Of a stretch of 64,000 nucleotides of DNA, positions 39,203-46,468 are shown one piece after another. This DNA comes from an uncultured Bacilli bacterium (GTDB lineage: Bacteria; Bacillota_I; Bacilli_A; ML615J-28; CAG-313). The translations under genes and the position numbers were made by a program. Where the stretch lies: contig CATLBQ010000001.1 of the NCBI GenBank assembly GCA_949879765.1, positions 1 to 64,000 of the forward strand, read 5' to 3'. The number at the start of each line of letters is the position of its first letter. Within the stretch, counting starts at the first letter, position 1. The notes under the pieces were generated by a model. It was given only the letters and a program-made list of their open reading frames with translations. It did no database searches and was not told the origin of the DNA.

Positions 39203-39284
39203 ATCTATTAAACGCTCTAATATTATAGCAAATTAAGGGAAGATAGTCAAATAAAAGGCTATTAAACTTTTGGAAAGGATGAAA

Positions 39285-41174
39285 ATGAAATATATCAAAG
39301 GAATAATCGTTTTGTGCATTGGTAGTTGTCTACTGATGAGTTGTAAAGAAAAACATCAGCACCAATGGGTAGAAGACGAGGGCGTGCTACCGAGTTGTGA
39401 GACCCCTGGATTAACAACGGGTTCACATTGTGCAGAATGTGGAGAAGTAATTACGCACCAAATTATCCTTGATGCGCTTGGGCATCAGTGGATGGGCGCT
39501 TCTTGTGATCAAGCCAAGACCTGTTCAGTTTGCCATCAAACCATTGGTGAACCATTAGAACATCAGTATAGTGAATGGCATTTGGTTGAAGAACCCACCT
39601 ATGAAACAGAGGGCATACGCGAAAAGGAGTGCTCACTTTGCCACAAGGTTGTATCAGAAACGATTCCCATGCTTCAGGCTGTAGATCAGATTGATAAAGT
39701 GATTTCGAACCTCGTTTTACCACAAGAAACTAGTCAAAATTTGGTTTTACCGACTGAACAAGAAGGCGTATCTATTACGTGGAAAAGCAATAAGACTTAT
39801 ATTATGACCCATGAGGGGGTTATTTCGAAAACTACGGCCAACCGGAAAGTTGAACTAGAAGCTACATTTGTATTTCGAGGGGTAGAAATAAAACAAACCT
39901 ATACAATTACAGTTTTGGCCTATACAACGGAAGAAAAATTACAACTCGTCATGGATACATTTACGTTTCCACAAAAAGTCTATCAAGACTTGGTATTATA
40001 TGCCAATTTGAGTTATCATGTGCAGGCCATATACACATCAAATCAACCTTCTGTTTGTACAAATGAAGGAAAAATTATCCGTCAAACAGAAGAAGTAGCA
40101 ATAGAACTTCATATTTTATTAACGTTAGAAGGTGAAAGTTTGGATAAAGTATTTTATTTTACAGTAGCAGCCAAGGAAGAAAGTGATAAACGACATCAAC
40201 TCATCATAAGAACGAATGAAATGGATGTTCATGATATTCCTGAGTTAGTAGTTTCCAATCAAAAATTGCGGCTACAAACAGAAAAACGAATGGGTAAATA
40301 CATTTCACCAGTGATAGAAACAGAAGCGTTTACTTCATTGGTTGCCTCTTGGTCGGCGGTGACTAGCCCCTATGCCACAGTAGAGTTACAATTGAAGGCC
40401 CGAATAGATGGCATATGGAGTGAATTTATTACCTATAGTCCTTGGGGATTGGGTCTACAAAATCAATCTCATGATCAAAATAATGGAATGATATGTTTAA
40501 GTACAGATGAGGTAAAGGTGTTAAATGGCAAAAAAGCAACCGCCATTCAGTTCCAATTGATTTTATCTAGAGATGAAAAAACAGGAGAATCTCCTGCACT
40601 TTCCCTTGTTTCGTTTGCATTAGAAATCCCTAATTATCAGTATTCTGTTGATGTAACAGAACTTCCTGAATCGATTCTTTATGATGTTCCTCAATTGAAT
40701 CAAAATGTTGTACCCACTATTGGTGGTAGTATTTGTAGTGCGACTTCTACAACAATGTTATTGAAATATAAAGGATTAGATTTTACGCATCAAGATTCGG
40801 AATTTGAACATCGTTATATAGCAAGTATCGTAAGAGACTATGGCAATCAAATCTATGGTAACTGGGTCTACAATACAGTAGCGATGGGGGGATATGGTTT
40901 TGATGCTTATGTAGCAAGAATGTATTCTGTCAATGAACTGATTGAACATTTGGCTACAGTTGGACCGGTTGCATTAAGTGTAAAAGGAACAATGATTTCT
41001 AGTGAAAAGACGTATACCACAAATGGTCATTAGATTGTTGCGATAGGGTATCGGTATGTTGATGGTGAATTATACATTTTATGCAATGACCCCAATGTGC
41101 CCCGTGTATATTGTGAATATGCATTATCTGTGATTGAAAAAACGTGGCGAAATATTGCTTATGTCATTGAGTAA
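39285..41174 (+). pseudogene. C39-like cysteine peptidase lipoprotein with an in-frame TAG
   Basis: Start chosen at ATG 39285, 6 bases after GGAAAGG. Lipoprotein signal MKYIKGIIVLCIGSCLLMSC, then three His/Cys-rich repeats (GHQW..C..C type, about 25-120), two atrophied-Ig-like domains (about 130-310), a beta region, and a C-terminal C39-like peptidase domain. Cys484 (GGSICSATST) and His582 (NGH) are present. A TAG at 41031-41033 follows that His. The frame then continues with IVAIGYRYVDGELYILCNDP (Asp602) to TAA at 41172, completing the expected Cys-His-Asp set. TAG occupies the place of a hydrophobic residue, one base from TTG (Leu). Either a nonsense mutation, a switched-off allele or an error. 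Confidence 0.85.
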
Positions 41175-41191: not shown

Positions 41192-41224
41192 AAAGGCTGA
41201 TATGATAGCAATATCAGCCTTTTT
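41192..41224 (+). terminator. Rho-independent terminator
   Basis: AAAGGCTGATAT pairs with ATATCAGCCTTT around GATAGCA, then Ts. It lies 18 bases after the TAA at 41174, supporting that TAA as the original gene end. Confidence 0.85.
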
Positions 41225-41303: not shown

Positions 41304-41309
41304 TATAAT
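41304..41309 (+). promoter_or_regulatory. Extended -10 before the HTH-membrane gene
   Basis: TGGTATAAT (hexamer 41304-41309), about 36 bases before the start; -35 is weak. Confidence 0.5.
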
Positions 41310-41345: not shown

Positions 41346-43261
41346 ATGCAGTTTCATGAAAAACTCAAAGCGTTACGACATCAAAAAGGAATATCACAAG
41401 CCGAACTTGCAGCCAAAATTTTTGTAAGTCGGAGTGCAATTGCCAAATGGGAAAGTGGATTGGGATTACCGAGTGAAGAATCCCTCGATTTACTCGCCCA
41501 GTATTTCGAAGTGGATGCCCATATGCTTTTATCTGATCCGGTCGTAGTAGATAAAAGGAATAAAAAAAAGAGCATATTGACGAAGAAAAAAGTAAGAATT
41601 TTGTGTGTCGCGAGCTTGCTTGCGGTGGTGACGGGCATATTGTTGACTTGGACACTAGCCAATTGGAAGCATTCAGCCCTCATTCCTCTACCAGATTCCT
41701 CTTTTCCCCTTCATGGCATGAAAAGAGAATTGATTCTTGAAACGGAAGTTGAAAAAGATACGCTGACTATTCCGAATTATTCAAACGAAGCAATAACGAT
41801 TGATCAAATATTTGCACCAAGCAGAATCATGAAAATAGATCAATTGGGACAAGTGACGTTGCCCCAATTACTCATCAAAACAACGATAAAAGATCAAGTG
41901 ACGTATGATCCAGTTGACATTCATACAGTAAGCTTTTTTATTCCTCAGGGATAAAGTCAACTATTGTTTCTGACCCATCTTATATACGCATTGAATTAGA
42001 AGATGCGATGGTAAAGAATTATAAAGGATATTTGAATATTCAAGTTGAAAATTTAATTCTTTCTCTACAAGTACTCAAGACACCAATAGCTATTGCTCAA
42101 ATGCAGATAGCTTTAAGCGATGACTCGGTCGAGCTTGGTTTGATGGAAAGCAAGGCTATGATACTTTCCATTCAACCCTTTGATGCTACATATCTCAATG
42201 AAAATACTCTCCATATTGTGAAAATGGAAAAAGCTGATGGCACTCTTTATGAGGAGGATGAATATTGTTATCTTACAATTGAAAAAGAGAATATCTATCA
42301 GTGGATGATAACAGCAACTCTTCAAATTGAAATTGGCACGAAAGTGTATCTACAAGTAACAAACGAGATAGAAGGTATACAAAGTAATATATTGGTGCTA
42401 GATATCATACGGATTCCGATTCAACGCATCACGTATACACCATATCAAAATTATATGGATTCAGGTTCTACCATCACTATGCAACTCAGAATATATCCAG
42501 AAAATGCTACAGCCAATCTATGCAAAGAGCCGTTTGATGTTACGTTACTTACGCCTAATATAGCCCATATGGAACAAAAAGAAGAAAAATTTTATATAAC
42601 TGCTTCACGAGTATTTGAAGATATTGGTCAAAAGATTCAGCTTCAAGTGAATACGATTGAAGGATATACGCAAACGATAGAATGGAAGATTATAGCTATT
42701 CCAATAGAAGCAATGCGGATTTTGAATAAGGAAACTGGTAAAGAATTAGATGCTACCTTTCAAATGACAAGGGGATCTACATTGGCATTGCAAGCTGTTG
42801 TAGAGCCAAACAATGCATCCTATAGTGATATCCACTATGGAATCGTTGCCAATTTGAGTCATATTGATCGATATGTATCAGTATCAGAAGATGGAGTATT
42901 GAAGATAGCAGAAAATGCACCACTTGATTTAGAAATTTGGTTAAGTATACGTACAGGAATTTTTACTTCCCCTGCTTATCATATTCGACTTGAAAAACGG
43001 AATCTAGAAAATGTAGTATGCGGTTGTGAGCAAACGGATATAGAGAAAAAGAAAGTCTATTCCTTATTTTGTCAATACACACCTATAGATGCAGATATTG
43101 AATCTGGTGTTCGTTATTATCTTTTAGATGAAATCGAAGGAATTTATTTGTCTGGGAATCTAATATTTGTAGATGAAATAGTAGAAGTAGGAACAGTGAT
43201 TCGAGTGATAGCTATTGTAGATGGCATCAAGAGCAATATTTTAACACTTATTGTTGTATAA
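41346..43261 (+). pseudogene. XRE-type regulator with membrane helix and extracellular Ig-like domains, frameshifted
   Basis: The first frame (41346-41954) encodes an XRE helix-turn-helix (about 5-60; ISQAELAAKIFVSRSAIAKWE), a basic linker, a membrane helix (about 83-104) and the start of a beta-rich domain. It stops at 41952. The next frame is open from before the T6 run (41934-41939) to 43261. It continues the beta domain as SSGIKSTIVSDPSYIRIELED, then repeated Big_2-like segments (IPIQRITYTPYQ, IIAIPIEAMRILNK). Adding one T restores a protein of about 638 residues; the ATG at 42008 has no Shine-Dalgarno. If intact it would be a one-component membrane-spanning regulator: DNA-binding inside, Ig-like sensor outside. 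Confidence 0.8.
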
Positions 43262-43287
43262 AAAAGGACTCCTACAGGAGTCCTTTT
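43262..43287 (+). terminator. Rho-independent terminator
   Basis: AAAAGGACTCC pairs perfectly with GGAGTCCTTTT around TACA, directly after the stop at 43261. Confidence 0.85.
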
Positions 43288-43308
43288 GCTAAATTCTAAG
43301 TTATCAAA

Positions 43309-46018: not shown

Positions 46019-46468
46019 ATGATTCGACAGGCAACACTAAATGATATAGAAGATATAGTTGAATTGGCGAGTTTATTATGGGAGAAGACAGATAGAGAAG
46101 AACTAAAAGAAGAATTCCATGATATTCTTGCAACAGCTGATGGCCAAGTTTTCTTAAAATATGATGCGCAGATAGCTGTTGGATTTGCACAATGTCAATT
46201 GCGATATGATTATGTAGAAGGAACCAAAACAACTCCAGTCGGTTATTTAGAAGGTATTTTTGTAAAGGAAAATTTCCGAAATAAGGGATATGCTAAAGCA
46301 TTAGTATTGGCATGCGAAAATTGGGCTAAGACAAAAGGCTGTGTGGAATTTGCAAGCGATTGTCCATTGGAAAATCATTGTAGTTTTGCATTTCATCGTG
46401 CGATGGGATTTACAGAAGTGAATAGAATCATTTGTTTTACAAAGAGACTAATCAAAGAAAATCAATAG
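46019..46468 (+). CDS. GNAT acetyltransferase, AAC(6')-I-like
   Basis: 149 residues. The opening MIRQATLNDIEDIVELASLLW, the acetyl-CoA loop GYLEGIFVKENFRNKGYAKALV and the end ASDCPLENHCSFAFHRAMGFTEVNRIICFTK follow aminoglycoside 6'-N-acetyltransferase type I closely. Resistance cannot be inferred from sequence alone; chromosomal relatives often have other substrates. RBS is GGAAGG. It lies alone and is closed by a strong terminator. Confidence 0.85.
   Translation: MIRQATLNDIEDIVELASLLWEKTDREELKEEFHDILATADGQVFLKYDAQIAVGFAQCQLRYDYVEGTKTTPVGYLEGIFVKENFRNKGYAKALVLACENWAKTKGCVEFASDCPLENHCSFAFHRAMGFTEVNRIICFTKRLIKENQ

What the first reader, a model, noticed from the sequence alone, without database searches (positions are those of the whole stretch)
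41925..42010. T6 homopolymer frameshift in a membrane-spanning HTH/Ig-like protein
HTH plus membrane helix end at 41954, while the next frame, open from before the T run, continues the extracellular beta domain with no RBS. One extra T joins them. The intact architecture (cytoplasmic XRE domain, one helix, several external Ig-like domains) would be a transmembrane one-component regulator, rarely described.
Basis: partly seen in the sequence, partly recalled or inferred. Interest (0 to 1): 0.6.

Follow-up and report, generated by a model that had tools for sequence, protein, structure and literature searches.

The report
Broken gene for a membrane-anchored regulator
A gene for a sensor protein, with a DNA-binding head inside the cell, one membrane helix and a large external domain, has been cut in two by a single-base frameshift in this gut-type bacterium while its sister species keeps it whole; the protein belongs to a known and common class of membrane-bound gene regulators, so the finding is real but fairly ordinary.

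Summary
An HTH_3 + membrane-helix frame ends at 41954. A second frame, open from 41918 to 43261 (447 codons), carries the rest of the protein with no signal peptide and no convincing ribosome site. The only full homologue found, in a sister MAG labelled Anaeroplasma (L048, syntenic, 84% DNA identity), is one intact 633-aa ORF with HTH, helix and beta-rich ectodomain in that order. So this is one gene, broken in the window genome. Both species carry six Ts, so a change in run length is not shown. Selection is alike before and after the break (omega 0.21 and 0.20) and no second lesion is seen, so the break is recent, or is a consensus error. The next gene upstream, an order-wide conserved C39-peptidase lipoprotein, also carries one in-frame TAG right after its putative catalytic His. 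The two are the only clear disruptions found among roughly 100 comparable genes. The architecture is not rare: transmembrane one-component regulators are widespread (PMC10269533). The HTH-helix module is closest to BcrR, the Enterococcus membrane-bound bacitracin sensor (39-42% over 94-100 aa), and the same module carries other ectodomains, including LRRs, across the class. RodZ is disfavoured. Target genes and ligand remain unknown.

The parts
41304..41309 (+). -10 element TATAAT with upstream TG, promoter of the regulator gene; block conserved in the sister
   Evidence: sequence; alignment with L048
41330..41339 (+). ribosome binding site of the regulator gene (AGGGAAGGGA)
   Evidence: sequence
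41346..41954 (+). 5' fragment of the regulator: HTH_3 domain, linker, membrane helix, about 100 aa of ectodomain; ends early in TAA
   Evidence: HTH_3 in the sister at 9.5e-14
41346..41531 (+). XRE/HTH_3 DNA-binding domain, BcrR-like (residues 1-62)
   Evidence: sister's HTH modelled at pLDDT 80-86
41598..41660 (+). predicted single membrane helix (about residues 85-105)
   Evidence: helix 76-100 in the sister model; hydropathy of the sister
41930..41941 (+). site of the one-base frameshift relative to the sister, at the T6 run 41934-41939
   Evidence: DNA alignment with L048
41918..43261 (+). rest of the ectodomain in the -1 frame (447 open codons), to the natural stop shared with the sister
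   Evidence: 74% identity to the sister
42704..43003 (+). beta-sandwich domain resembling Big_2 (second half of the modelled 200-aa stretch)
   Evidence: AlphaFold2 model pLDDT about 50-84; Foldseek to Big_2 of 7quz, 96 columns, rmsd 3.0
43266..43288 (+). inverted repeat with T tail after the regulator gene (likely terminator)
   Evidence: sequence
39270..41174 (+). upstream lipoprotein with aBig_2 domains and a C39-like peptidase domain, interrupted by TAG at 41031-41033
41192..41222 (+). inverted repeat followed by a T tract between the peptidase and regulator genes, so the two are likely separate transcripts
   Evidence: and sequence

Best explanation
Window 41346-43261 is one gene, recently broken by a one-base indel at the T6 run. 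Intact, as in the sister species, it encodes a single-pass transmembrane transcription regulator: a BcrR-like XRE domain that binds DNA from the membrane, one helix, and about 530 residues of beta-rich, Big-like ectodomain that senses something outside. Shown: one fused ORF in the sister; the order HTH - helix - beta domain; equal constraint on both halves; no second lesion. Inferred: DNA binding, outside location of the C-terminal part, signalling across the membrane, and real decay in this genome rather than a consensus error. In the window genome the product would be a truncated HTH-helix protein with about 100 residues outside, which may still bind DNA but has lost most of its sensor.
For: The sister has one 633-aa ORF at the same place in conserved gene order. 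Both fragments match it at about 74%. omega is 0.214 before and 0.195 after the shift, with dS about 0.8, and the post-shift frame has no stop in 417 codons. HTH_3 is found in the sister at 9.5e-14, and the HTH plus helix at fair confidence in the model. The N-terminal module matches annotated BcrR at 39-42% over 94-100 aa and aligns without gaps across the HTH. About a dozen other proteins, mostly of the same class and one from a Clostridiales MAG, join this module to one helix and other ectodomains. TAG is a normal stop here (4 of 14 genes). The peptidase next door is also broken, which fits local gene decay better than a random base-calling error.
Against: The genome is a MAG and no reads or second strain could be checked. 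Constraint after both lesions is strong, so they must be very young if real. There is no direct evidence of DNA binding, ligand or target. The ectodomain fold is only modestly supported (mean pLDDT 39 full length, 48 for the 200-aa piece).
Confidence: 0.65

Rival explanations
1. The frameshift, and perhaps the TAG in the neighbour, are consensus errors of the metagenome assembly; the living bacterium has both genes intact.
For: MAG in 32 contigs. Purifying selection on codons after the TAG is very strong (omega 0.02) and equal on both sides of the frameshift. Two lesions within 1 kb could come from a locally thin or strain-mixed stretch.
Against: No other clear disruption in about 100 compared genes, low contamination (0.15%), and one of the two lesions is a substitution at an invariant Leu codon, not an indel.
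Confidence: 0.27
2. The gene works as it stands: ribosomal frameshifting, transcriptional slippage or phase variation at the T6 run makes some full-length protein.
For: Constraint on the second part is undiminished; RNA downstream folds somewhat better than shuffles (z -1.66).
Against: In frame the site reads C TTT TTT A, not an X XXY YYZ heptamer. T6 runs are common (151 A/T runs of six in the window). The sister has T6 too and needs no shift.
Confidence: 0.06
3. RodZ-like protein: an XRE domain on a membrane helix that links the cytoskeleton to the envelope and does not bind DNA.
For: Same gross order of parts (RodZ review PMC6946637).
Against: No HTH_25 match in this or the sister genome; the HTH is HTH_3, nearest to BcrR. 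No MreB: the only hit is a DnaK-like ORF.
Confidence: 0.03
4. Two separate genes: a short HTH-membrane regulator followed by a soluble beta protein.
For: Short HTH-membrane proteins are common in the class.
Against: The sister is fused, the second part has no signal peptide or good RBS, and no stand-alone second part was found in 43 genomes of the order.
Confidence: 0.01

Closest known systems
BcrR (Enterococcus bacitracin one-component transmembrane regulator)
   Same: N-terminal XRE module and start of the first helix align at 39-42% over 94-100 aa; gene forms its own transcription unit
   Different: BcrR-type proteins have four predicted helices (L078-L080) and no obvious extracellular domain (PMC3968067); bcrR sits beside its target transporter genes and senses bacitracin; here one helix, a large ectodomain, no transporter next door
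Transmembrane transcription regulators (TTRs; ToxR, CadC, TcpP, BcrR and others; PMC10269533)
   Same: Cytoplasmic HTH plus membrane helix plus external part in one protein; single-pass is the commonest form (about 56%)
   Different: ToxR, TcpP and CadC have winged OmpR-type domains (general knowledge); here XRE/HTH_3 with a Big-like ectodomain
RodZ
   Same: XRE-type domain, one helix, external beta domain
   Different: No HTH_25, no MreB in the genome, HTH of the BcrR type

Membership tests
Transmembrane transcription regulator (single-pass TTR) | DNA-binding domain recognised by curated model | tested here: met
   HTH_3 51.6 bits against cut-off 23 in the intact sister
Transmembrane transcription regulator (single-pass TTR) | At least one membrane helix in the same chain | tested here: met
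   helix 76-100 in model and hydropathy
Transmembrane transcription regulator (single-pass TTR) | Binds DNA and changes transcription from the membrane | not testable with these tools
   needs experiment
Transmembrane transcription regulator (single-pass TTR) | Whole protein encoded in the window genome | tested here: not met
   reading frame broken at 41930-41941; intact only in the sister
BcrR | BcrR-type XRE module | tested here: met
BcrR | Four membrane helices, no large ectodomain | tested here: not met
   one N-terminal helix and about 530 further residues
BcrR | Neighbouring bcrAB-type transporter | tested here: not met
   neighbours are a C39-peptidase lipoprotein, tRNA-Lys and a 5'-nucleotidase-like lipoprotein
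RodZ | HTH_25 domain | tested here: not met
   no match in own or sister genome
RodZ | MreB partner in the genome | tested here: not met
   only a DnaK-like ORF matches PF06723; the MAG is 93% complete
Bacterial Ig-like (Big_2) ectodomain | Curated profile match | tested here: not met
   no credible Pfam match in any ectodomain piece
Bacterial Ig-like (Big_2) ectodomain | Beta-sandwich fold of the Ig/Big type | tested here: inconclusive
   one domain at moderate confidence matches Big_2 of 7quz, 96 columns, rmsd 3.0; the rest is low confidence

The most novel reading that the evidence does not exclude
BcrR-type HTH-helix modules form a mix-and-match family of one-component sensors in Bacilli and their relatives, in which the DNA-binding head is kept and the external part is exchanged freely (leucine-rich repeats, Big-like repeats, unknown beta domains), giving direct control of genes by surface contact with large external ligands.
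Probability: 0.3. Interest if true: 0.45.

Novelty: new member of a known kind. Interest (0 to 1): 0.2.

Why it matters
If the sensing reading is right, the intact sister protein extends the BcrR type of membrane-bound regulator from small-molecule sensing by membrane helices to large external domains, and the LRR and Big-like versions offer defined sensors to test. The frameshift itself is an ordinary case of a recently broken gene or an assembly error.

Tried and rejected
Recoding of TAG: rejected, TAG ends 4 of 14 neighbouring genes. Programmed -1 frameshifting: wrong register for a slippery heptamer, and the sister needs none. A conserved regulator-peptidase pair: rejected as general, since the peptidase occurs across the order (40 of 43 genomes have a match) without this regulator next to it in the 18 loci examined, and the regulator ectodomain occurs only in the two sister genomes. 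A shared gene neighbourhood for the HTH-helix family: none seen in ten loci. Full-length AlphaFold model: ectodomain not usable. The disruption count is partly by inspection: most flagged cases are antisense or over-extended frames; four frames of about 100 aa (in L106, L111, L113) were not resolved one by one.

Full report
What is there. The window belongs to contig 1 of a 1.48-Mb, 32-contig genome, 93% complete with 0.15% contamination. Its nearest held relative (G001, found by name as JAMPAL010000025, a MAG labelled Anaeroplasma bactoclasticum, locus L048) is syntenic over 31752-53249 at 84% DNA identity. The organism label is that of the record and was not tested.

The observation. The ORF 41346-41954 encodes 202 aa with its own promoter and RBS. 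T6 lies at 41934-41939 and the TAA at 41952-41954. The -1 frame is open from 41918 to 43261, 447 codons; the longest open frame in 500 shuffles was 128. The second part starts at ATG 42008 at best, with no signal peptide and only a weak upstream GAAG.

One gene, broken. The sister encodes the whole as one 633-aa ORF in the same place. The two window fragments match it at 74% each. No other genome among 43 of the order has the ectodomain, so the sister is the only full-length witness. In the DNA alignment the window has one base fewer beside the T run, but both species have six Ts.

Age of the break. Between the two species dS is about 0.8 for this gene. omega is 0.214 before and 0.195 after the break, against 0.02-0.13 for the flanking genes. 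The 417 codons after the break contain no stop. A gene long freed from selection would show more lesions, so the break is recent relative to the species split, or is an error of the assembly.

A second lesion next door. The gene upstream (39270-41174) is a lipoprotein with aBig_2 domains and a C39-like peptidase domain. A TAG at 41031-41033 replaces a Leu that is invariant in 18 relatives, directly after the putative catalytic His of GH-L-I-V. The 45 codons after it have omega 0.02. Related genes occur across the order. TAG is an ordinary stop in this genome. Comparing about 104 sister ORFs with own DNA, these two were the only clear disruptions in own; the sister has one in an acetyltransferase gene. 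Two random hits among about 104 genes would be neighbours in about 2% of cases, which hints at a shared cause, either joint decay or a local assembly fault. An inverted repeat with a T tail between the genes (41192-41222) and the regulator's own promoter suggest separate transcripts. In 18 other peptidase loci no such regulator lies alongside, so a fixed functional pair is not supported.

What the protein is. The intact sister has HTH_3 (51.6 bits, cut-off 23), a helix at 76-100 and a beta-rich remainder. Pfam finds no domain in the ectodomain. A 200-aa piece modelled with two sequences gave one domain at moderate confidence whose fold matches the Big_2 domain of 7quz (96 columns, rmsd 3.0) among other Ig-like folds. 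'Ig-like' is thus reasonable for one domain and unproven for the rest.

Nearest known. The N-terminal 113 aa match annotated BcrR of Enterococcus and Ligilactobacillus plasmids at 39-42% over 94-100 aa, and the alignment is gap-free across the HTH. BcrR is a one-component transmembrane bacitracin regulator that lacks obvious extracellular domains (PMC3968067) and has an XRE domain (PMC3435297, for the C. perfringens protein). Across 395 genomes of the class, 33 carry close relatives of this module. Some have three or four helices like BcrR; others have one helix and a large external part, including LRR_5 repeats in L036 (1.9e-52) and undescribed domains in L022, L024, L047, L062, L064 and L070. 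A survey finds transmembrane transcription regulators widespread, with single-pass forms about 56% of them (PMC10269533) and helix-turn-helix the commonest DNA-binding domain. So the architecture is a known kind.

RodZ. RodZ has the same gross order, but its XRE-type domain does not bind DNA and it works with MreB (PMC6946637). Here HTH_25 is absent from own and sister genomes and the only MreB-profile hit is a DnaK-like ORF. RodZ membership is not met.

Verdict. Real, correctly read in its main point, ordinary in kind: a recently broken (or mis-assembled) gene for a BcrR-type, single-pass membrane-bound regulator with a Big-like ectodomain. Function in sensing is inferred, not shown.

Noticed in passing
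window 41031-41033: In-frame TAG in an order-wide conserved C39-peptidase lipoprotein, replacing an invariant Leu after the putative catalytic His; strong constraint continues after it (omega 0.02).
   Followed up: yes
window 46019-46468; L048 14312-14713: AAC(6')-type aminoglycoside acetyltransferase (NF043067, 191.8 bits against cut-off 140), intact in the window, with a TGA inside the frame in the sister.
   Followed up: partly
L036 1501-3336, L037 118-1953: Same HTH-helix module fused to BspA-type leucine-rich repeats (LRR_5, 1.9e-52 in L036), a likely single-pass regulator with an LRR ectodomain in related genomes.
   Followed up: partly
L057 590-2268: Two tandem paralogous HTH-helix regulators with short ectodomains.
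   Followed up: no
L023 1501-2658: HTH-helix protein with a second C-terminal helix, perhaps an HTH joined to a permease-like external domain.
   Followed up: no
G000 whole genome: No MreB found; the only profile hit is a DnaK-like ORF, in keeping with a genome that may lack a rod-type cytoskeleton.
   Followed up: partly
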